In this document: in pieces, positions 3,727 through 49,973 of the stretch
Position numbering within the stretch: the first letter of the stretch is position 1
Layout: the number at the start of each line of letters is the position of its first letter
Assembly (NCBI GenBank): GCA_020161395.1
Contig: JAIUOE010000009.1
Location: 1-64,000, forward strand
DNA length: 64,000 nt
Source of the DNA: Bacteroidota bacterium
GTDB lineage: Bacteria; Bacteroidota; Ignavibacteria; Ignavibacteriales; Ignavibacteriaceae
Reading direction: 5' to 3'
Notes under the pieces: model-generated
Told to the model about the DNA's origin: nothing
Seen by the model: the letters and a program-made list of their open reading frames with translations, nothing else
The model's database searches: none
Made by a program: the position numbers and the translations under genes

Positions 3727-5484
3727 TTGAAAACGGAATTGTTGATTATTGGCGGCGGTGCCTCGGGCATCTGTGCCGGAATTCAGGCTGCCCGCATGGG
3801 TATTAAAACCCTGATTGTTGAAGAATCCTCCATGGTCGGCGGAATGTTCCTAGCTGCCGGTGTAACTGCTTTCGACGGGAACAAATATGCAGTCGGAGGC
3901 GGAATTTTTGGCGAGTTCAGAAAAAAAATTGAAGACCACTACGGCGGTCCTGACAACACCTTCACCGGCTGGATCAGTCTTACCTGTTTCGAACCCCGCG
4001 TTGGACAAAAAGCCCTCGACGAACTCATCGCCTCCGCAGGTGACAACCTCACCATATGGTACAACACCAAACTCGTCTCAATAATCAAGGATGCGAATAA
4101 TGTCAGGGGGGCGGTGGTTCGAGTACCTGAGAACTTGAGTACTCGAGTACCAGAGTACCAAAGAACCGGAGTATCGGAGAATCTGAGTAATGAAGAAACA
4201 GAGCACTCATATACTCAAGTTCTCAATTACTCAAGTACTCAAGTTCAGATCCACGCTGATATTACCGTTGAAGCTACCGAGTACGGGGATGTACTTTATC
4301 TGGCGGGACTGCCTTTCAGGTTTGGGAGGGAGTCAACATTTGAGTCAGGTGAACCCTCTGCTCCGCATGATCCCGATGAGATAATTCAGGACCTCACTTT
4401 TTGTGCGATTCTTAAAAAAGATCCCGACAACATTAAAATTGTACCTCCATCAGAGAATTACGATCCCGAAAGATTTGTAAACTCAACAGCGGAACATTCC
4501 AATTCGACGGATGAAGCATATCTGAACCACAAACTTCACAACTGGGAGAGCTTCATTTCTTATGCCGCACTTCCCAATGATAAATATCTCCTTAACTGGC
4601 CCTTCAGATCGAACGATTATCCGACCACAAGGGAAATCTATGACGATTTCGAAAAAAGGGAATGGCACCTCGAGAAGGCGAAGGAGCTGACCCGCGACTA
4701 CATCCACTACATGCAAACGAAGCTCGGTCATCCCGAGTGGGGAATCGATGAAACAGCTTATGACACTCCAGACCACTTCCCCCCGATTCCTTATGTTCGT
4801 GAAAGCAGAAGAGGCATCGGAAATTATTACATGAGAGAATGGGATGTGGTGCCCGATGAATATACCTTGAGACCTCCCCTCATCAGCGACTCGATTGCCG
4901 TGGGCGACTATTTCCTCGACCACCATCACAGCCACATGTTCAAGGAACCCGAAGAGAGGCTGTTCGAGGAACTTCCTGCAAATGCACCGTTTCAGATTCC
5001 GATGGACTGCCTTATCCCTGCCGGAGTGAACGGACTCCTTCTCGCAGAAAAATCGATTTCCGTATCGCATATTGTGAATGGTTGCACCAGACTTCAACCG
5101 TGTGTAATGCTTATTGGTCAGGCGGTTGGTGCCCTCGCTGCCCTCTCCATTAAAAAGGAGAGAAGACCCGCAGACATTTCCGTGATGGATGTTCAGGATG
5201 TCCTCCTCGAAGCGGGTTGCCAGCTTTTCCCCTACAAAGACCTCTGGAATACAAATCCCCGGTTTACCAAGATACAGGAACTCGCCATTGCCGGATTCTT
5301 TGTGGTGAAAGAGGATTTCTCATTCAGTGGTGAGGAACCCGTTACTGCTCAGGAAATCGAAGCTTATCTCGAAGCTTTCGAAATGGACAGTGACGAGGCA
5401 AACGAAATTGTGTTCGAACACGAGGGGAAACCCCGTTACGAACTTTTTGACACACTATACAATCTACTTAAAGCCGGATACTAA
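3727..5484 (+). CDS. FAD-dependent oxidoreductase (FAD_oxidored family) carrying an in-frame repeat array
   Basis: A 585-residue flavoprotein of the FAD_oxidored (PF12831-like) type. It starts at a TTG codon preceded by AAAGGA; this start is needed because the dinucleotide-binding motif GGGASG begins at residue 9. VEATEYGD near 182-189 is the second FAD-contact motif of the family. Residues about 132-174 are encoded entirely by a period-8 nucleotide array (4121-4248) rich in Ser, Thr, Glu and Gln. It falls in the loop between a beta-strand (AVVRV) and the strand leading to VEATEYGD, where relatives normally have a short turn. The reading frame stays open through all 16 units. The product is cytosolic by the lack of a signal peptide; the substrate is unknown. 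The stop overlaps the start of the M14 peptidase gene (TAATG). Confidence 0.8.
   Translation: MKTELLIIGGGASGICAGIQAARMGIKTLIVEESSMVGGMFLAAGVTAFDGNKYAVGGGIFGEFRKKIEDHYGGPDNTFTGWISLTCFEPRVGQKALDELIASAGDNLTIWYNTKLVSIIKDANNVRGAVVRVPENLSTRVPEYQRTGVSENLSNEETEHSYTQVLNYSSTQVQIHADITVEATEYGDVLYLAGLPFRFGRESTFESGEPSAPHDPDEIIQDLTFCAILKKDPDNIKIVPPSENYDPERFVNSTAEHSNSTDEAYLNHKLHNWESFISYAALPNDKYLLNWPFRSNDYPTTREIYDDFEKREWHLEKAKELTRDYIHYMQTKLGHPEWGIDETAYDTPDHFPPIPYVRESRRGIGNYYMREWDVVPDEYTLRPPLISDSIAVGDYFLDHHHSHMFKEPEERLFEELPANAPFQIPMDCLIPAGVNGLLLAEKSISVSHIVNGCTRLQPCVMLIGQAVGALAALSIKKERRPADISVMDVQDVLLEAGCQLFPYKDLWNTNPRFTKIQELAIAGFFVVKEDFSFSGEEPVTAQEIEAYLEAFEMDSDEANEIVFEHEGKPRYELFDTLYNLLKAGY
4121..4248. repeat. 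Period-8 array A, in frame inside the FAD oxidoreductase gene
   Basis: Sixteen consecutive 8-nt units in unbroken phase. Plus-sense words such as GAGTACCT, GAGAACTT, GAGTACTC and GAGTACCA fill the first half; complementary-sense words such as AAGTTCTC, AATTACTC and AAGTACTC fill the second. The two halves can pair into a long imperfect hairpin. Because the period is not a multiple of three, each unit is read in a different frame, yet no stop codon interrupts. It resembles array C at 15451-15529 in word content. Confidence 0.85.
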
Positions 5485-7473: not shown

Positions 7474-9576
7474 ATGATGTTAAAGCAGCTTTTCTTTCTC
7501 GTTTTTACCACCATTTCAATTTTCTCGCAGTATGCGGGCATCAACCTCGATACCGTAAAAGCCGGAAAATGGGATATGGGGAGGATGTGGACTTTTGAAA
7601 AACCGCCTGTCGACTACTTTGACAAAACCTACAATTTCCGACCGTCAGAGGAATGGTTAACAAAAGTAAGAAGAGCTGCACTTCGTTTCGGTGGAGGTTG
7701 CACTGCCTCCTTCATCTCCGAAGACGGTCTCATAATGACCAACCACCACTGCGCCAGAAATATCATCTACAAAGGTCAAAAGGAGGGTGAAGACTTCCTG
7801 AGAGACGGATTTTATGCCGGAACTGACGAAAACGAGAGAAGAATCCCCGATCTTTCCATCGAACAGCTCGTTTATATAGAGGATGTTACCGAAAAAATAA
7901 ACGATGCCCTCGTTACCGCCAAAACAGACGAAGAAAGAATCGCCATCAAAAAAGCTAAATCGGAAGAACTCATCGATGAGGCTACTGAAAAGAATCCCGG
8001 ACTCAATTTCATGGTCGTTCCCCTTTACAACGGAGGAAGGAACTCCCTTTACGGCTACAAAAAATATGATGATGTGCGGCTCGTTTTTGCTCCCGACCTC
8101 AGAACCGCAAAACTCGGCGGCGACTACGACAATTTCACCTTCCCGAGATACGGACTCGATTGCATGTTCTTCCGTGCCTACGAAAACGGCAAGCCGATAA
8201 AAACAGATGACTGGTTTGCGTGGAGTGAAAAAGGAGCAGATGAAGGCGAAGCTGTTTTTGTGATCGGAAATCCCGGCAGCACCTCCCGCCTCAACACCAT
8301 TGCACAGATGGAGTTTGAGCGGGACTACCTCAATCTCCCTGTGGTTGAATGGCTGAGTGAACTCTACAAAATCATTGAACAGCAGGTGCTCAACGGAAAC
8401 ACAGAAAACTACAAACTTATCGCCGAACTTTATTCCATCGGCAACGGTCTGAAAGTTTACGACGGTATTTATAAAGGTCTGAACGACCAGTATCTCGTTG
8501 CCCGCAAGAAGGATTTTGAGAAGAATTTCAAAGCGGCAGTCATGGCGAATCCCGCTCTGAAAGAAAAATACGGGCACATCTGGGACGAAGTTGCCGAAGG
8601 ACGCGAACGGCTGAAACCGATTGCAAGAGAGCTTTTTGGATATAACTTCAACCGCAGATATTCACCCGAACTTTTCCGGATAGCTTCCACCCTGGTAACT
8701 GTTGCCGAAGGGAAAAAATCGAATCCTGACAAGTTCACAGTGGAAAAACTTGATTCCATCGCCGCTACATTTTTCCCTGCGTCCATGAATCTCGAAACGC
8801 AGGAACGCTACCTCCAGGTGCAGGTGAATCTCATTCTCCGCAATCTCTCAGGGAACAAGGAATTGATGGAGCTCCTCTTTGCGGGAAAAACGGGAAGTGA
8901 AGCGAAGAAACAACTGCTCGCCGGCACAAAACTTATGGACAAATCGTACAGAGATAAACTCCTTAAAGGTTCATCAGATGATATTTTGAACTCAACCGAT
9001 CCTGTAATTAAATTCATCCTCACGGCTAAGAAAAAACTTGCCGAATACGGAAAGATCAACAAGGAAGTGTTGTCGCGCGATCAGGTAAACAACAGCATGC
9101 TCGGTGAAGCCCTTTTCAAAGTTTACGGAGAGTCGATTCCCCCCGATGCCACCTTTACACTCAGAATCAATGACGGTGTGGTAAAAGGGTACAATTACAA
9201 CGGAACAGTTGCACCCGTAAAAACCACTTTTTATGGTGTTTTGGACAGATATTACTCATTCGGGAAGAAATTTCCATTTAACCTCCCAAAAATCTGGGAG
9301 AACCTGCCAAAAGAGTTTGATCTCTCGACACCACTTAATTTCATTACCACAAACGACATCATTGGCGGCAATTCAGGTTCACCGATGATCAATAAAGAAG
9401 GTAAAATCGTTGGACTCGTCTTCGACGGTAATGTGGAATCCCTCACCGCCGACTTCATCTACACCGACGAAGCCAACAGAGCCATCGCCGTCCACTCACA
9501 GGGCATGGTCGAAGCCATCTCAGACCTCTATGGGGCTAAAAAACTCGCACAGGAGATAGTGAAAGGGAAGAGGTAA
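7474..9576 (+). CDS. S46 family dipeptidyl-peptidase, DPP7-like
   Basis: A 700-residue serine exopeptidase of MEROPS family S46 (DPP7/DPP11), which removes dipeptides from N-termini, usually in the periplasm. A signal peptide is present (about 1-19). The catalytic His lies in TNHHC (89-93) and the catalytic Ser in GGNSGSP (Ser634). The specificity position 18 residues after the Ser is Gly652; DPP7 (hydrophobic P1) has Gly there and DPP11 (acidic P1) has Arg, so DPP7-like specificity is inferred. Two ATG codons are adjacent at the start; either could be used. No T9SS domain is seen, consistent with a periplasmic enzyme acting after the secreted M14 enzyme. A repeat array begins directly after the stop codon. 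Confidence 0.9.
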   Translation: MMLKQLFFLVFTTISIFSQYAGINLDTVKAGKWDMGRMWTFEKPPVDYFDKTYNFRPSEEWLTKVRRAALRFGGGCTASFISEDGLIMTNHHCARNIIYKGQKEGEDFLRDGFYAGTDENERRIPDLSIEQLVYIEDVTEKINDALVTAKTDEERIAIKKAKSEELIDEATEKNPGLNFMVVPLYNGGRNSLYGYKKYDDVRLVFAPDLRTAKLGGDYDNFTFPRYGLDCMFFRAYENGKPIKTDDWFAWSEKGADEGEAVFVIGNPGSTSRLNTIAQMEFERDYLNLPVVEWLSELYKIIEQQVLNGNTENYKLIAELYSIGNGLKVYDGIYKGLNDQYLVARKKDFEKNFKAAVMANPALKEKYGHIWDEVAEGRERLKPIARELFGYNFNRRYSPELFRIASTLVTVAEGKKSNPDKFTVEKLDSIAATFFPASMNLETQERYLQVQVNLILRNLSGNKELMELLFAGKTGSEAKKQLLAGTKLMDKSYRDKLLKGSSDDILNSTDPVIKFILTAKKKLAEYGKINKEVLSRDQVNNSMLGEALFKVYGESIPPDATFTLRINDGVVKGYNYNGTVAPVKTTFYGVLDRYYSFGKKFPFNLPKIWENLPKEFDLSTPLNFITTNDIIGGNSGSPMINKEGKIVGLVFDGNVESLTADFIYTDEANRAIAVHSQGMVEAISDLYGAKKLAQEIVKGKR

Positions 9577-9608
9577 GTAGCGAAGTAGCGGAGAATCGGA
9601 GTAGCGGA
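9577..9608. repeat. Period-8 array B1 (GTAGCGGA words)
   Basis: Four 8-nt units (GTAGCGAA, GTAGCGGA, GAATCGGA, GTAGCGGA) begin at the base after the S46 peptidase stop codon and end on the first base of the next start codon. The GGAG inside the array is correctly spaced to act as the ribosome binding site for that gene. Reverse-complement words occur in arrays H and I. Confidence 0.8.
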
Positions 9609-9839: not shown

Positions 9840-9867
9840 TAATACCTAATACCTAAACCCTAATACC
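9840..9867. repeat. Period-7 array B3 (TAATACC)
   Basis: Four 7-nt units (TAATACC twice, TAAACCC, TAATACC) in tandem. Same word and orientation as arrays B4 and D2; reverse complement of array D1. Confidence 0.8.
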
Positions 9868-10013: not shown

Positions 10014-10034
10014 TAATACCTTATACCTAATACA
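10014..10034. repeat. Period-7 array B4 (TAATACC)
   Basis: Three 7-nt units (TAATACC, TTATACC, TAATACA), 20 bases upstream of the start of the next gene. Direct orientation relative to B3. Confidence 0.65.
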
Positions 10035-14322: not shown

Positions 14323-15441
14323 ATGTCCAACAGTCCAACATTTACCCTTGGAGTTGAAGAGGAATTTCAGATTATTGATCCTCATTCCAGGGAATTGAAA
14401 TCGCACATACAGGAGATATTTGAAGACGGCGAACTGATACTCAAAGAGTTTCTGAAGCCCGAAATGCACCAGTCGGTTGTGGAAACGGGTACGGGTGTCT
14501 GTAAAAATGTTAAAGAGGCAAAATCGGAAGTGTTCCGCCTTCGCAGCGAACTTGCCAAGCTTGCTTTCAAAAACAATTTAAGAATTGCAGCCGCAGGAAC
14601 TCATCCATTCTCACACTGGAAGGACCAGAGAATAACCGAACATCCCCGCTATAAACAGGTGGTGGATGACATGCAGCTTGTTGCCCGTGCCAATCTGATA
14701 TTCGGACTCCATGTCCATGTCGGAGTTGAAGACCGCGAAACGGCAATTCACATCATGAATGCCGCCCGCTATTTTCTGCCGCACATCTTTGCCCTTTCCA
14801 CCAATTCCCCCTTTTGGGTGGGAAGAAACACAGGCTTCAGGTCGTATCGTGTGAAGGTATTCGACAGATTCCCGAGAACGGGCATTCCCGACTATTTCAT
14901 GTCGATTGGCGAATATGACAACTATGTTAACCTTTTGGTCAAGACCAACTGTATCGACAATGCGAAAAAAATCTGGTGGGATATCAGGCTTCACCCCTTC
15001 TTCCCGACGATTGAGTTCCGCATCTGCGACATCCCGATGAGGGCTGATGAGACCATCGCACTTACTGCACTTATGCAGGCGGTGGTTGTGAAACTCTACA
15101 GACTGATCCGCCAGAACCTCGGTTTCCGTCTCTACAGAAGAGCGTTGATTGCCGAAAACAAGTTCCGTGCTTCAAGATACGGAATTACCGGTAAGCTGAT
15201 CGATTTTGGCAAGAGAGAGGAAGTGCCGACCGTTGACCTGATCCATGAACTCCTCGAGTTTGTTGATGATGTTATTGACGATCTCGACAGCCGCGAAGAG
15301 ATTGAGTATGTACACCGCATCCTCGAAATGGGTACGGGTGCCGACAGACAACTCGCCGTCTGGGAACAGAGCTACGACCTGAAAAATGTAACCGACTATA
15401 TAATTGATGAGACCCATAAGGGGTTGAATCTGAGTAGCTGA
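14323..15441 (+). CDS. Carboxylate-amine ligase, GCS2 (YbdK-like) family
   Basis: A 372-residue member of the glutamate-cysteine ligase 2 family. The start GVEEEFQIID (about 10-19) carries the metal-binding glutamates; ETGTGVC, GLHVHVG and EFRICDIPMRADE are the conserved blocks of the glutamine-synthetase-like catalytic fold. YbdK-type enzymes show weak glutamate-cysteine ligase activity, but most family members act on unknown substrates and are often found beside ATP-grasp proteins. Here an ATP-grasp gene precedes it by 6 bases and an ATP-grasp-like gene follows after array C, suggesting successive amide-bond formation on one small molecule. Confidence 0.88.
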   Translation: MSNSPTFTLGVEEEFQIIDPHSRELKSHIQEIFEDGELILKEFLKPEMHQSVVETGTGVCKNVKEAKSEVFRLRSELAKLAFKNNLRIAAAGTHPFSHWKDQRITEHPRYKQVVDDMQLVARANLIFGLHVHVGVEDRETAIHIMNAARYFLPHIFALSTNSPFWVGRNTGFRSYRVKVFDRFPRTGIPDYFMSIGEYDNYVNLLVKTNCIDNAKKIWWDIRLHPFFPTIEFRICDIPMRADETIALTALMQAVVVKLYRLIRQNLGFRLYRRALIAENKFRASRYGITGKLIDFGKREEVPTVDLIHELLEFVDDVIDDLDSREEIEYVHRILEMGTGADRQLAVWEQSYDLKNVTDYIIDETHKGLNLSS

Positions 15442-15450
15442 GAGACCAGA

Positions 15451-15529
15451 GAGACTTGAGAAACTCGAGAGACTTGAGAAACTTGAGAAACTCAAGTCAC
15501 TCAAGTACTCAGGTCACTCAGGTACTCTC
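15451..15529. repeat. Period-9 array C with self-complementary halves
   Basis: Nine units, mostly 9 nt (GAGACTTGA, GAAACTCGA, GAGACTTGA, GAAACTTGA, GAAACTCAA, GTCACTCAA, then 8- and 9-nt forms ending GTACTC). The first four units are complementary to the last four, so the array can fold into a hairpin of about 35 bp per arm. A looser lead-in (15431-15450) reaches the stop codon of the GCS2 gene. Word content is close to array A. Confidence 0.8.
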
Positions 15530-15565: not shown

Positions 15566-16765
15566 ATGGTAAAAGAGATAAGATCCCTGTATAATGCAGG
15601 ATTTACGGAAGAGAGATACAATTCGTTTATTGGAGATTTGAACACTGCTGCCGGGGTGAAACTCGATTTCAGGGTGTGTGAAACTCCCTTGTTCCTCTCG
15701 GATGAACTGACAAAGACTTTGGAGAAGGCGTGTGCCGAACTTATCGGACAGCTTGATACCGATGAGTACAGAAAGTATGCCGAGGCTTCAATTCCGGAAG
15801 GGCTGGCGGTTCCGAACCGTGCTGATCACCCTGTCTTTTTGCAGATAGATTTCGCAATTTGCGATGATGGCAAAGGTGGATTTATTCCCAAACTGATCGA
15901 GCTTCAGGGTTTCCCCTCGCTTTACGGCTTTCAGGTCTATTATGATGATGTTTTCCTGCGGCATTTCGAGGTTCCCGAAAATTATACTGCCTACTACAGC
16001 GGTCTCAGTCGAGATTCGTATGTGGAACTGTTGCGAAAAACCATTCTCGGTGACTCAAATCCTGAAAATGTGATTCTTCTTGAAATTGAACCGGACAAAC
16101 AGAAAACCCTGATCGATTTTGTTGTTACCGAACAATTAACGGGCGTAAAACCTGTGTGCATTACCGATGTCATCAAAAAAGGGAGACAACTCTTCTATAA
16201 ATCTGGTGACAGGGAAGTGCTGATCGAACGGATTTACAACAGGGTGATATATGACGAATTGTTCAGAAAAGATGTGAAAGCTGCTTTTTCATTTCAGGAT
16301 GACCTGGATGTGCGCTGGGTTGGGCATCCCGACTGGTTTTTCCTCATCAGCAAATATTCCCTTCCATATCTCAAAGGGGAATATGTGCCCGAGTGCCACT
16401 TCCTTTCCGACTTGAAGGAGTATCCCGCTGATCTAGAGAATTTTGTGCTCAAACCCCTCTTTTCATTTGCGGGTCTGGGTGTTGAAGTGGAAGTAACAAA
16501 AGAACTTCTTGATTCGAAAACGGAGAGGGAAAACTACATTCTGCAAAGAAAAATAGAGTATGCCCCGCTGATTCTCACCCCCGAAGGCTACTCAAAATGT
16601 GAAATAAGAATGATGTTTCTGTGGAATGAAAAACCCGTCCTTGTGAACAATCTCACCCGCTTCTCAAAAGGAAAAATGATGGGTGTCGATTTCAACAAAA
16701 ACAAAACATGGGTGGGATCGGCAACGGCGTATCATCCAAAGCAGGTATTAGGTATTAGGTATTAA
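15566..16765 (+). CDS. ATP-grasp-like protein of unknown substrate
   Basis: A 399-residue cytosolic protein. The C-terminal third has ATP-grasp-like features: FVLKPLFSFAGLGVEVEV (about 291-308), followed by YILQRKIEYAPL and KCEIRMMFLW. The N-terminal part (LQIDFAICDDGKGGFIPKLIELQGFPSLYGFQ) resembles the substrate half of circularly permuted ATP-grasp enzymes, so this may be a permuted ligase. It belongs with the ATP-grasp and GCS2 genes upstream. The last six residues (VLGIRY) and the stop codon are encoded by the GGTATTA array D1, so the natural C-terminus has been replaced or extended by repeat sequence. Confidence 0.72.
   Translation: MVKEIRSLYNAGFTEERYNSFIGDLNTAAGVKLDFRVCETPLFLSDELTKTLEKACAELIGQLDTDEYRKYAEASIPEGLAVPNRADHPVFLQIDFAICDDGKGGFIPKLIELQGFPSLYGFQVYYDDVFLRHFEVPENYTAYYSGLSRDSYVELLRKTILGDSNPENVILLEIEPDKQKTLIDFVVTEQLTGVKPVCITDVIKKGRQLFYKSGDREVLIERIYNRVIYDELFRKDVKAAFSFQDDLDVRWVGHPDWFFLISKYSLPYLKGEYVPECHFLSDLKEYPADLENFVLKPLFSFAGLGVEVEVTKELLDSKTERENYILQRKIEYAPLILTPEGYSKCEIRMMFLWNEKPVLVNNLTRFSKGKMMGVDFNKNKTWVGSATAYHPKQVLGIRY
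16744..16764. repeat. Period-7 array D1 (GGTATTA), left inverted arm of the S23 cassette
   Basis: Three perfect GGTATTA units in tandem, exact reverse complement of the TAATACC units in D2. The third unit supplies the stop codon of the ATP-grasp-like gene. It is followed by a degenerate stretch at 16771-16787 (GTAGCCGG, GAATTGGC) that resembles the GTAGCGGA/GAATCGGA words of array B1. Confidence 0.85.
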
Positions 16766-16781
16766 TTGAGGTAGCCGGGAA

Positions 16782-17141
16782 TTGGCGATGAATGCTTTAT
16801 CGGAAAAAAGTTTAAAGTTTGCAGTCCGGATATTTAAATTAGCAAAGCATCTGGATAGTAAAAAAGAATTTATTATCTCAAATCAGATTCTTAGATCAGG
16901 CACAAGCATTGGAGCTAATATAAGCGAAGCTCTTTATGCAGAATCAAAATTGGATTACATTCATAAGTATTCGATCGCCCAAAAAGAGTGTTCAGAAACC
17001 CTTTACTGGTTGATGATCCTTAATGAAACAAAAATTTTATCGACCGAAGAGTTTACAAGCATCAATGATGACTGTATAGAACTAATGAAACTTTTAGTAA
17101 AAACCTTGAAAACTCTTAAATCGAAAAAAAATAATACCTAA
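16782..17141 (+). CDS. S23/IVS-type four-helix-bundle protein (TIGR02436-like)
   Basis: A protein of 119 residues from TTG at 16782, or 117 from the likelier ATG at 16788. It matches the four-helix-bundle family first found in 23S rRNA intervening sequences and related to the Avd accessory protein of diversity-generating retroelements. FAVRIFKLAKHL, ILRSGTSIGANISEAL and AQKECSETLYWLMILNET are the family hallmarks. Family members form pentameric, positively charged barrels that bind nucleic acid; their cellular role is poorly known. No reverse transcriptase or variable repeat lies nearby. The last residues (NNT) and the stop codon come from array D2. Base composition is A+T-richer than the neighbours. 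Confidence 0.88.
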   Translation: MAMNALSEKSLKFAVRIFKLAKHLDSKKEFIISNQILRSGTSIGANISEALYAESKLDYIHKYSIAQKECSETLYWLMILNETKILSTEEFTSINDDCIELMKLLVKTLKTLKSKKNNT

Positions 17142-17159
17142 TACCTAATACCTAATACC
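17132..17159. repeat. Period-7 array D2 (TAATACC), right inverted arm of the S23 cassette
   Basis: Four perfect TAATACC units. The first two encode the end and stop codon (TAA at 17139-17141) of the S23-type gene. The stop of rseP, on the opposite strand, is 6 bases beyond the array. Confidence 0.88.
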
Positions 17160-17164
17160 TTCTC

Positions 17165-18538
17165 TCATTTTCCAAAAATATCATTATAGATAACAAACGC
17201 CATCAAGCCGATAAGGAGCGCCATGCCGGTATTCATTATGCGGAGCTTGATTTTGAGGGGGATTTCCCGTTTGATTATCGATTCGATGATAATGAAAACG
17301 AGATGACCACCGTCAAGTACGGGAATCGGGAAAAGGTTGAATATTGCAAGGCTGAGCGAAAGCATCGCGATGAAATAGAGGAATCCCGACATTCCTTTGT
17401 CTGCGGAATCGGCAGCTATCTGGGCGATTTTTACGGGACCGCCGAAAGCTTTTCCGAACGCCACATCTCCTGAAATAACCTTGCCAAGCATCGAGAAGGT
17501 AAGAACAGTAACTGAACCGATCTGTTCGATGCTTTTGCCGCCTGCCTCAAAGAAACCATAGTTGTAGCTTGTAAACATGGTGGTATCGGATTTTCCACCG
17601 AGTGCGATTCCGGCTTTCCATGCTCCAGCTTCATCCTGTTTCGGGGTCACAGCAATTGCGAGTGTGTCTTTACCTCTTAGGATTGTAAAATCAACAGGTT
17701 TCCCTTTGGAATGGGAGATAATGTCGATAACCTGAGTAACCGAATTTACGGGTTCGCTGTTCAGAGCGAGGATTTTGTCTTTTGGTTTTATGCCCGCTTT
17801 GCCCGCAGGGGTTGAGGCATCTGTATTGTCAACGAAAGGTTCGGTTTTATCGAGGATCGGGAAAAGGGGACCCTTCGACTCATCCTTCGGCACATTTTGT
17901 TTGGGAATTGTAACTGTCTTCTTTTCGCCATTGCGTTCAAATTCCACTGTTATATCCCTGCCTGCGTTGTGAATCAGAACCTGTTCGCTAATTTCGTGGA
18001 GATATTTAATTTTGTTGTTGTTGATGGCGGTAATCAAATCACCTTTCTGGAATCCGTGCTTTTCAGCGAGTGATTCCTTTGGGATGTAGTTGAGACCTCT
18101 TACCTCAACCAGTTGTTTTCCCATCGAGATGTTCATTCCCCAGAAGATGACCACTGCGAGGAGGATATTCATAAGAATTCCACCGAGGATAACAAATATC
18201 TTTGCAGGTGCAGATTTCGACCTGAATTCGTAGGATTTTGGTTCGGTCTGAGCATATTCTGCATCAAGACTTTCATCCACCATGCCCGAGATTTTCACAT
18301 AACCTCCGAGCGGAAGCCAGCAGAGTCTGTAGTCGGTGTAGCCTTCGAGGTCAAGATCTTCGGGAAGTGCGCCAAAAGAGAGTCCGCGGTTTTTGCTCCA
18401 TCCGACAACTCTTCTTCCAAATCCTATGGCAAACGCCTCGGTTCTCATTCCCGTCATTTTGGCGGCAAGGAAGTGACCGAGTTCATGCACAAAAACAAGA
18501 ACTGCTATAGTGATTATAAAATAAATTACTTCTTGCAT
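17165..18538 (-). CDS. rseP: RIP/site-2 zinc metalloprotease
   Basis: A 457-residue intramembrane protease of family M50B. The catalytic HELGH is in the first membrane helix (18-22), and the third zinc ligand lies in the C-terminal PVLDGGH motif near 407. Two PDZ-like domains lie between (about 135-215 and 225-310; KAGIKPKDKILALN is the second carboxylate-binding loop). Such proteases cleave anti-sigma factors and leftover signal peptides in the inner membrane. The gene is 16 bases downstream of dxr, the usual dxr-rseP pairing of many bacteria, and is probably the last gene of a three-gene minus-strand operon. Confidence 0.92.
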   Translation of the reverse strand: MQEVIYFIITIAVLVFVHELGHFLAAKMTGMRTEAFAIGFGRRVVGWSKNRGLSFGALPEDLDLEGYTDYRLCWLPLGGYVKISGMVDESLDAEYAQTEPKSYEFRSKSAPAKIFVILGGILMNILLAVVIFWGMNISMGKQLVEVRGLNYIPKESLAEKHGFQKGDLITAINNNKIKYLHEISEQVLIHNAGRDITVEFERNGEKKTVTIPKQNVPKDESKGPLFPILDKTEPFVDNTDASTPAGKAGIKPKDKILALNSEPVNSVTQVIDIISHSKGKPVDFTILRGKDTLAIAVTPKQDEAGAWKAGIALGGKSDTTMFTSYNYGFFEAGGKSIEQIGSVTVLTFSMLGKVISGDVAFGKAFGGPVKIAQIAADSADKGMSGFLYFIAMLSLSLAIFNLFPIPVLDGGHLVFIIIESIIKREIPLKIKLRIMNTGMALLIGLMAFVIYNDIFGK

Positions 18539-20356: not shown

Positions 20357-20396
20357 ATTATTGCATTATTGGATTACTGCATTATTGCATTACTTC
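20357..20396. repeat. Period-8 array E (ATTATTGC words)
   Basis: Five units in phase (ATTATTGC, ATTATTGG, ATTACTGC, ATTATTGC, ATTACTTC). The last unit contains the stop codon of the minus-strand S8 protease gene (TAA, complement of 20390-20392). Same word set as arrays F, G1 and G2. Confidence 0.85.
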
Positions 20397-24682: not shown

Positions 24683-24742
24683 ATTACTGCATTATTGGAT
24701 TATTGCATTATTGCATTACTGCATTATTGGATTACTGCATTA
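24683..24742. repeat. Period-8 array F (ATTACTGC words)
   Basis: Seven units in exact phase (ATTACTGC, ATTATTGG, ATTATTGC twice, ATTACTGC, ATTATTGG, ATTACTGC), then ATTA, which gives the stop codon of the minus-strand NUDIX gene. Same word set and same stop-codon phase as arrays E and G2. Confidence 0.88.
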
Positions 24743-35671: not shown

Positions 35672-36040
35672 ATTAATTTCTTCTCCGTATGTATTTTTTT
35701 TTGATCTACTGAAATATAATACAAAAAGGAGAGTTTATGAAGCGATTAGCAAATTAGTTGCATGCCAGAAGTTCGGGAAGTGATATCCATAGATTTCACA
35801 ACCTTATATCGTCCTGCAGGAATAAATATTGGCAAAGTATTAAAAGGTTTAGTATCGGAATCGAAAAAAAATGAAGTATCGAGAAGCAATATCGAACTTT
35901 TTGTCTGACCGGCTTGCCACCACTTTTTCAGATAAAACGATACATTAAATGTCTGCCCCCTCTAGAGACAGCCCTATAAATTAGTTGTAGTTTTTGGTTT
36001 TCGACCCCCGAATGAATTCGAGGGCTATTGGTAATGTATG
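35672..36040. other. Non-coding region upstream of fbp
   Basis: No credible gene. It holds the fbp promoter region, one copy of an 80-bp element (35828-35910) and an imperfect palindrome at 36004-36024 (CCCCCGAAT facing ATTCGAGGG). Array H follows at its right end. Confidence 0.6.
35828..35910. repeat. Degenerate intergenic 80-bp element, copy 1
   Basis: Matches 39184-39264 in direct orientation through blocks GCAAAG, AAAAATGA, GAAG-AA-ATC and AACTTTTTG-CTGACC. Identity by eye is roughly three in four. Both copies are intergenic and non-coding. Confidence 0.5.
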
Positions 36041-36072
36041 CTACTCTGTTACTTCGCTACTCCGCTACTTCA
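36041..36072. repeat. Period-8 array H (CTACTCCG words)
   Basis: Four units (CTACTCTG, TTACTTCG, CTACTCCG, CTACTTCA), the reverse complement of the B1 word set. The last unit holds the stop codon (TAG, complement of 36065-36067) of the decayed T9SS gene. Confidence 0.8.
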
Positions 36073-49931: not shown

Positions 49932-49936
49932 AAAAC

Positions 49937-49973
49937 ATTACTGCATTATTGGATTACCTGCATTACTGCATTA
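49937..49973. repeat. Period-8 array G2 (ATTACTGC words)
   Basis: Units ATTACTGC, ATTATTGG, a 9-nt unit ATTACCTGC, ATTACTGC, then ATTA, which is the gyrA stop codon (complement of 49971-49973). Same phase relative to the stop as arrays E and F. Confidence 0.85.

What the first reader, a model, noticed from the sequence alone, without database searches (positions are those of the whole stretch)
16744..17159. S23-type four-helix-bundle gene bracketed by inverted TAATACC arrays
The GGTATTA array on the left is the exact reverse complement of the TAATACC array on the right, and the only gene inside is an S23/IVS-type protein. Intervening sequences in 23S rRNA have this same plan (stem ends with the S23 gene in the loop). 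The same word occurs without the gene at 9840-9867 and 10014-10034, as if non-autonomous copies exist. The protein may bind the array stem and take part in spreading or maintaining arrays. This is the strongest candidate in the window for an undescribed system.
Basis: partly seen in the sequence, partly recalled or inferred. Interest (0 to 1): 0.87.

Follow-up and report, generated by a model that had tools for sequence, protein, structure and literature searches.

The report
S23 genes bracketed by inverted heptamer arrays
A small gene of the S23 family, known mainly as a passenger in some bacterial ribosomal-RNA genes, turns out nearly always to sit between two mirror-image runs of a 7-letter DNA word, and bacteria that carry S23 genes have many such 7-letter runs elsewhere while bacteria without them have almost none, so this protein may be behind an unexplained and widespread class of bacterial DNA repeats.

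Summary
In detail: an S23 (PF05635/TIGR02436) gene at 16788-17141 lies between GGTATTA x3 and TAATACC x4. It exemplifies a general rule. About 80% of 99 S23 loci from Bacteroidota-centred searches, and all 16 plasmid S23 genes read from 7 phyla, sit between inverted, imperfect tandem arrays. The unit is almost always 7 bp, sometimes 8; the word differs from locus to locus, and each arm matches its own partner. Elements sit right after the stop codon of a mostly co-directional gene. The nuoC-nuoD junction shows empty, filled and decayed states, and the two arms change together. S23 is under purifying selection (dN/dS 0.03-0.11) and shares its fold with Avd of diversity-generating retroelements. 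Away from S23 loci, heptamer arrays are about 15 times commoner in S23-rich than in S23-free genomes; within two genera the contrast is 0 versus hundreds of pattern hits. The published Coxiella 23S rRNA IVS has heptameric repeats just upstream of its S23 ORF. Best reading: an IVS-like hairpin element in mRNA operons whose protein acts on heptamer arrays in cis and probably in trans. RNase III excision, binding and direction of causation are untested; a G.U-wobble test gave no sign of RNA-level selection.

The parts
15566..16765 (+). Upstream host gene (399 aa, no Pfam match). Its last codons and TAA stop are supplied by the left array (...KQVLGIRY*)
   Evidence: congener comparison
16744..16764 (-). 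Left arm: GGTATTA x3 (= TAATACC on the - strand)
16788..17141 (+). S23 / four helix bundle protein (PF05635, TIGR02436), 117 aa; stop codon TAA at 17139-17141 lies inside the right array
   Evidence: AF2 model pLDDT 95, matches 2rld, 2gsc and Avd 4dwl
17132..17159 (+). Right arm: TAATACC x4, reverse complement of the left arm
17165..18538 (-). Converging downstream host gene: M50 peptidase with PDZ domains (RseP-like)
15420..15527 (.). Gene-less array hairpin (GAGAGACTT/GAGAAACTC units against ACTCAAGT units) at the end of the GCS2 gene, one gene upstream of the S23 element
4090..4246 (.). Gene-less inverted arrays, 8-bp units GAGTACCN / NTACTCAA
44200..44296 (.). Gene-less array hairpin, 8-bp units GAACTCCG / GAAGTTCT, at the end of a - strand gene

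Best explanation
This is one copy of a widespread hairpin element made of an inverted array of ~7-bp repeats, an S23 gene, and the complementary array. It is the mRNA-borne counterpart of the S23-carrying intervening sequence (IVS) of some 23S rRNA genes. It sits just behind a host stop codon, usually inside an operon, so S23 is probably made by read-through. SHOWN: anatomy, period 7, word-matched arms, gain and loss at orthologous sites, concerted change of the arms, purifying selection on S23, Avd-like fold, and co-occurrence of S23 with heptamer arrays genome-wide. INFERRED: (1) the transcript folds into a stem that RNase III cuts, as published for the Coxiella IVS, so that the flanking cistrons tolerate the insert; (2) the S23 oligomer recognises the heptamer hairpin as DNA or RNA and promotes its growth, its correction between arms, or its spread, in cis and in trans, which would explain why S23-bearing genomes are full of gene-less heptamer arrays. 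Because arm mismatches show no G.U bias, I favour step 2 acting through DNA synthesis or repair on hairpin DNA (slippage and template switching), not selection on the RNA stem.
For: Arms: own-partner score median 33-35 against 19 for mismatched loci and 0.18% background; period 7 (or 14) in 65 of 79 arm pairs and 8 in 13, lag-7 identity 0.53 against 0.26-0.33 at other lags up to 13. Breadth: 16 of 16 plasmid S23 genes in Bacteroidota, Bacillota, Spirochaetota, Cyanobacteriota, Chloroflexota, Gemmatimonadota and Pseudomonadota. Gain/loss: nuoC-nuoD spacer without arrays 2-117 nt, with S23 435-578 nt, relics L125 and L177. Concerted arms: within-element 32 against 20 for the same arm of other nuoCD elements. 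Position: 75 of 82 behind a co-directional gene, left arm mostly within ~20 nt of its stop. Trans link: 30 heptamer arrays in 739 kb of S23-rich genomes against 2 in 741 kb of S23-free genomes, control periods 5, 10, 11 and 13 equal; 148 genomes, medians 34.5 against 1, p 2e-10, congeners 0,0 against 1046,663 and 0 against 486; period-10 control flat. Words shared within genome/genus, hardly at all across genera. dN/dS 0.03-0.11. Coxiella IVS: RNase III excision, heptameric repeats (PMC4990558).
Against: No G.U excess in the arms (83 against 83), so nothing here shows the RNA stem is what is selected. No near-identical S23 copies within a genome, so recent movement of the S23 unit is not seen. 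Two S23-free genomes (G141, G151) still have many arrays, so S23 is not strictly required. The within-genus test is modest (p 0.011). Correlation does not give direction: heptamer-prone genomes might simply tolerate S23 elements. About 20% of Bacteroidota-centred S23 loci fall below the arm threshold (26), some because of contig ends or decay, and one phage S23 has none (L198).
Confidence: 0.6

Rival explanations
1. Ordinary slippage microsatellites: heptamer arrays arise at gene ends in certain genomes through replication habits, and S23 genes land between or next to them without causing them.
For: Heptamers are reported as the most abundant class of longer simple repeats in most genomes (cited in PMC4679880). 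G000 has many one-armed arrays at gene ends. G141 and G151 have arrays but no S23.
Against: Slippage does not give reverse-complement words on both sides of one gene family in 7 phyla, nor arms that change together, nor zero against hundreds between congeners that differ in S23. Control periods do not follow S23.
Confidence: 0.2
2. A conventional transposon whose terminal inverted repeats happen to be heptamer arrays, moved by an unlinked transposase (REPIN/RAYT-like), with S23 as passenger or accessory protein.
For: Inverted ends, gene-less copies with a shared 100-nt core at 3 sites in G000 and one in G003, insertion polymorphism at nuoCD.
Against: Ends have no fixed sequence, no consistent target duplication was seen by eye, no S23 pair within a genome reaches 80% identity, and no second gene lies inside the element.
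Confidence: 0.12
3. The arrays are host RNA-processing or terminator hairpins at gene ends, and S23 is a host regulator that binds them; the arrangement is not selfish.
For: Hairpins sit at gene ends; S23 is under strong purifying selection at stable sites, e.g. upstream of rnpB in two sister species and at one site in Nostoc.
Against: No wobble bias; presence varies among close relatives at the same site, with different words, cargo or nothing; neighbour functions are unrelated (nuo, cas, R-M, rnpB, rseP).
Confidence: 0.15

Closest known systems
S23-encoding intervening sequences (IVS) in 23S rRNA (Leptospira, Coxiella)
   Same: S23 gene inside a loop closed by terminal inverted repeats. The Coxiella IVS has tandem heptameric repeats (GACAGAT) of variable number just upstream of the S23 start, and is cut out by RNase III (PMC4990558).
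   Different: Here the element lies between protein genes, not in rRNA (no rRNA match at the 40 S23 loci scanned). Arms are arrays whose words differ per locus and are shared with gene-less arrays genome-wide. RNase III cutting not tested.
Bacterial heptanucleotide repeats (TAACTGA repeats of Beggiatoaceae; GGGAATC repeats of Xanthomonas and Nostoc)
   Same: 7-bp tandem arrays, intergenic, near stop codons. Xanthomonas has 70-75 inverted pairs per genome (PMC4692102); TAACTGA arrays in Cyanobacteria and Bacteroidetes (PMC4679880). Xanthomonas campestris encodes the S23 of PDB 2gsc.
   Different: A text search of those two papers found no mention of S23; MacGregor 2015 states that no mechanism is evident. 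The S23 gene inside an inverted array pair and the genome-wide S23 correlation are new here.
REPIN/RAYT system (from knowledge; PMC2817692 seen as title and abstract only)
   Same: A gene flanked by inverted short repeats, dispersed gene-less inverted pairs, a presumed trans-acting protein.
   Different: No tyrosine transposase; S23 is a small four-helix bundle. The ends are arrays of variable words, not a fixed palindrome.
Avd of diversity-generating retroelements
   Same: Same fold (Avd 4dwl TM 0.79; DGR RT ribonucleoprotein 8ub7 TM 0.76). Avd is part of an RNA-bound RT complex.
   Different: 11-12% identity; no reverse transcriptase or template repeats beside S23 here.

Membership tests
S23-type 23S rRNA IVS | Encodes an S23 / four helix bundle protein | tested here: met
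   PF05635 E 2e-28, TIGR02436 E 1.5e-31; model matches 2rld and 2gsc
S23-type 23S rRNA IVS | Complementary ends that close the ORF into a stem-loop | tested here: met
   Arms pair in the RNA fold, z -6.8
S23-type 23S rRNA IVS | Located inside a 23S rRNA gene | tested here: not met
   Between two protein genes; no rRNA in L001 or in 39 further S23 loci
S23-type 23S rRNA IVS | Excised from the transcript by RNase III | not testable with these tools
   Needs transcript mapping in wild type and rnc mutant
DNA transposon with terminal inverted repeats / MITE | Conserved terminal sequence and target-site duplication | tested here: not met
   Words differ at each locus; no consistent duplication seen at nuoCD by eye
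DNA transposon with terminal inverted repeats / MITE | Presence/absence at orthologous sites | tested here: met
   nuoC-nuoD empty, filled and relic states; window site differs among congeners
REPIN/RAYT | Flanked gene encodes a Y1 tyrosine transposase | tested here: not met
   Only an S23 gene lies between the arms
Diversity-generating retroelement | Reverse transcriptase with template/variable repeats next to Avd | tested here: inconclusive
   None of the five ORFs scanned around the element matches a reverse transcriptase; the rest of the genome was not searched for RTs
Bacterial heptanucleotide repeat arrays | Tandem 7-bp units, intergenic, near gene ends | tested here: met
   Period 7 in 65 of 79 arm pairs; most arms start within ~20 nt of a stop codon

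The most novel reading that the evidence does not exclude
S23 four-helix-bundle proteins are the trans-acting machinery that creates, homogenises and spreads heptanucleotide arrays in bacteria. The rRNA IVS and the mRNA S23 elements would be the autonomous form of one previously unrecognised class of genetic element, and the long-unexplained heptamer repeats its non-autonomous progeny.
Probability: 0.45. Interest if true: 0.93.

Novelty: new variant of a known kind. Interest (0 to 1): 0.85.

Why it matters
It joins two orphan phenomena: S23 proteins, which have solved structures but no known function, and heptanucleotide repeats, reported as over-represented in many bacteria without a known mechanism. 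Congeneric genomes with and without S23 (0 against hundreds of array hits) give a ready genetic test. If S23 acts on hairpin arrays, bacteria have an element class whose ends are arrays that rewrite themselves while staying complementary, and the odd IVS of 23S rRNA becomes a special case of it.

Tried and rejected
RNA-stem selection: arm mismatches tested for G.U excess in the sense strand, none (83 against 83). Recent duplicative transposition: no within-genome S23 pair of 80% DNA identity or more among 105 loci. rRNA location: Rfam scans of 40 S23 loci gave only RNase P RNA next to two of them. TA target duplication at nuoCD: looked plausible by eye but not in all copies, and confounded with the word TAGTATT, so not claimed. 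Viral contigs: no close S23 relative. Anti-phage library PADLOC: no match. Single-origin test for nuoCD S23 copies: clustered (3 changes against 8.6 shuffled) but one origin neither shown nor excluded. The first nuoCD tree lost copies to deduplication and was replaced. A literature search for TIGR02436 gave nothing.

Full report
OBSERVATION. The left array GGTATTA x3 (16744-16764) and right array TAATACC x4 (17132-17159) are present as described, and the only gene between them is an S23 / four helix bundle gene. The left array supplies the last codons and stop of the upstream gene, and the right array supplies the S23 stop codon. TAATACC is over-represented in the window (17 against 4.7 expected). 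The word copies at 9840-9867 and 10014-10034 are real, but both are in the same orientation, so they are not an inverted pair.

GENERALITY. The window's genome (G000, 4.07 Mb) has three S23 genes, and all three lie between inverted arrays with three different words: GGTATTA; AGTTATG/AGTTTTG; and the 8-mers GCAATAAT/GCAGTAAT/CCAATAAT. I scored the complementarity of the two flanks of each S23 gene. For loci from the order and phylum the median own-partner score is 33-35; pairing one locus's left flank with another's right flank gives 19; and only 0.18% of 4570 sliding windows in the own genome reach 33. Of 99 distinct S23 loci, 80% score 26 or more. The best repeat lag is 7 (or 14) in 65 of 79 arm pairs and 8 in 13; mean identity at lag 7 is 0.53 against 0.26-0.33 at the other lags tested up to 13. 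On plasmids, 16 of 16 S23 genes read, from Bacteroidota, Bacillota, Spirochaetota, Cyanobacteriota, Chloroflexota, Gemmatimonadota and Pseudomonadota, have such arms (median 53.5 against 19 mismatched). The single phage S23 read has none. Four chromosomal Nostoc orthologues share a site and differ in the number of TGAAGTA/TGAAGTG units.

POSITION. In 75 of 82 elements the gene upstream points the same way as S23 (60 of these also have a co-directional downstream gene, 15 a converging one), and the left arm usually begins within about 20 nt of the upstream stop codon. Annotated plasmid cases lie between hsdS and hsdR, cas6 and cas4, cas10 and cmr3, cas2 and cas1 (there S23 is antisense to the operon), and drmD and a type IIL R-M gene. 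In a 400-kb stretch of G004 all S23 loci lie in inverted arrays, and at loop sizes of 300-450 nt S23 is almost the only cargo; gene-less array hairpins there and in G000 mostly have loops of about 10-106 nt.

GAIN, LOSS AND CONCERTED CHANGE. At the nuoC-nuoD junction of 49 order-level genomes with both genes readable, most spacers hold no array (2-117 nt, most under 50). Nine hold a typical S23 between inverted arrays (435-578 nt), with the nuoC stop then TAG from the array. Two hold a distant S23 with arrays. L125 and L177 keep only the S23 C-terminus and the right array, i.e. relics, L177 with a second gene-less array pair beside it. In the filled sites each left arm resembles its own right arm (median 32) more than the same arm of the other elements (median 20), although the S23 copies cluster in the tree: the arms change together. 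Sister species G000 and G003 share the S23 element upstream of rnpB, and the right arm differs by one 7-bp unit. At the window's own site the congeners differ completely: G003, with a 96% identical upstream protein, has no S23 but a gene-less GGCTGAA/TTCAGCC array pair; G002 has a TGTGAAA hairpin; G001, in which no S23 was found, has no array. A gene-less element with a 100-nt core and GGTATTA/TAATACC arms occurs at three sites in G000 and one in G003.

PROTEIN. S23 pairs show dN/dS of 0.03-0.11. The AlphaFold2 model of the window protein (pLDDT 95) matches the S23 structures 2rld and 2gsc and, more distantly, Avd (4dwl, TM 0.79) and Avd in the DGR reverse-transcriptase ribonucleoprotein (8ub7, TM 0.76).

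LINK IN TRANS. Outside S23 loci, period-7 arrays number 2 in 741 kb of S23-free genomes and 30 in 739 kb of S23-rich genomes (p 1e-7), while periods 5, 10, 11 and 13 do not differ. With a whole-genome pattern for heptamer arrays in 148 genomes of the phylum, the 32 S23-free genomes have a median of 1 hit and the 116 with S23 a median of 34.5 (p 2e-10; Spearman with copy number 0.60; genus-level 0.63 over 83 genera). In genus g50 the two S23-free species have 0 and 0 hits and the two with S23 have 1046 and 663; in g58 it is 0 against 486. Hits overlap within long arrays, so they are not independent events. A period-10 control pattern is near zero everywhere. Exceptions with arrays but no S23 are G141 and G151, also under a laxer search. 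Arm words recur elsewhere in the same genome or genus but hardly in other genera.

LITERATURE. Warrier et al. 2016 (PMC4990558) describe the Coxiella 23S rRNA IVS: inverted ends forming a 28-bp stem, excision by RNase III, and two to three tandem heptameric repeats upstream of the S23 start that vary among strains. MacGregor 2015 (PMC4679880) and Rehm et al. 2015 (PMC4692102) describe heptamer repeats, in Xanthomonas with inverted pairs near stop codons; a text search of both found no S23. I found no paper in the open-access library that links heptamer arrays to S23 genes in general. Subscription papers and preprints were not searched, so novelty is provisional.

MECHANISM. Shown: anatomy, period, word matching, insertion polymorphism, concerted arms, selection on S23, genome-wide correlation. 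Inferred: read-through expression and RNase III excision by analogy with Coxiella; action of S23 on hairpin arrays. Mismatches between arms show no G.U bias (83 against 83), so selection on the RNA stem is not supported, and I favour arm-to-arm copying at the DNA level (slippage and template switching), with S23 assisting. The direction of causation is the main open point.

Noticed in passing
L002:839-1352 and L144:2007-2535: S23 elements in G000 and G002 sit directly next to the RNase P RNA gene rnpB, and the G003 orthologue L145 has the same flank.
   Followed up: partly
L194, L312, L314, L189, L195 (plasmids): S23 elements are inserted inside CRISPR-Cas (cas2-cas1, cas6-cas4, cas10-cmr3), type I R-M and DISARM gene clusters on plasmids.
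   Followed up: partly
window 9571-9608, 20357-20392, 24683-24742, 36040-36071, 49936-49973: One-armed 8-bp arrays at the 3' ends of genes, in the same orientation relative to the stop codon; the ATTATTGC/ATTACTGC words match the S23 element L003.
   Followed up: partly
L199, L200, L201, L202: A 100-nt non-coding core bracketed by GGTATTA/TAATACC arrays: three copies in G000 (79-100% identical to the query copy) and one at the orthologous site in G003, with left-arm unit number from 2 to 9. A MITE-like family.
   Followed up: partly
G141 and G151: Genomes with 337 and 135 heptamer-array pattern hits but no detectable S23 gene: recent loss of S23 or another factor.
   Followed up: partly
G167: One S23 gene but 863 heptamer-array pattern hits, an extreme expansion.
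   Followed up: no
L070:16521-17200 (G000 C1 near 116521): A strong non-tandem inverted repeat (score 139), probably ends of an insertion sequence or a long palindrome.
   Followed up: no
G000 C1:98138-98265, 209621-210073, 212915-213090: A separate family of 9-bp inverted arrays (CGCAAAGAA), one with a 380-nt loop that holds no S23.
   Followed up: no
L163-L167 and G004:C1:85590-86879: G004 has 19 S23 matches, including two adjacent elements 1 kb apart and several frame-broken ones, in one 3.9-Mb genome.
   Followed up: no
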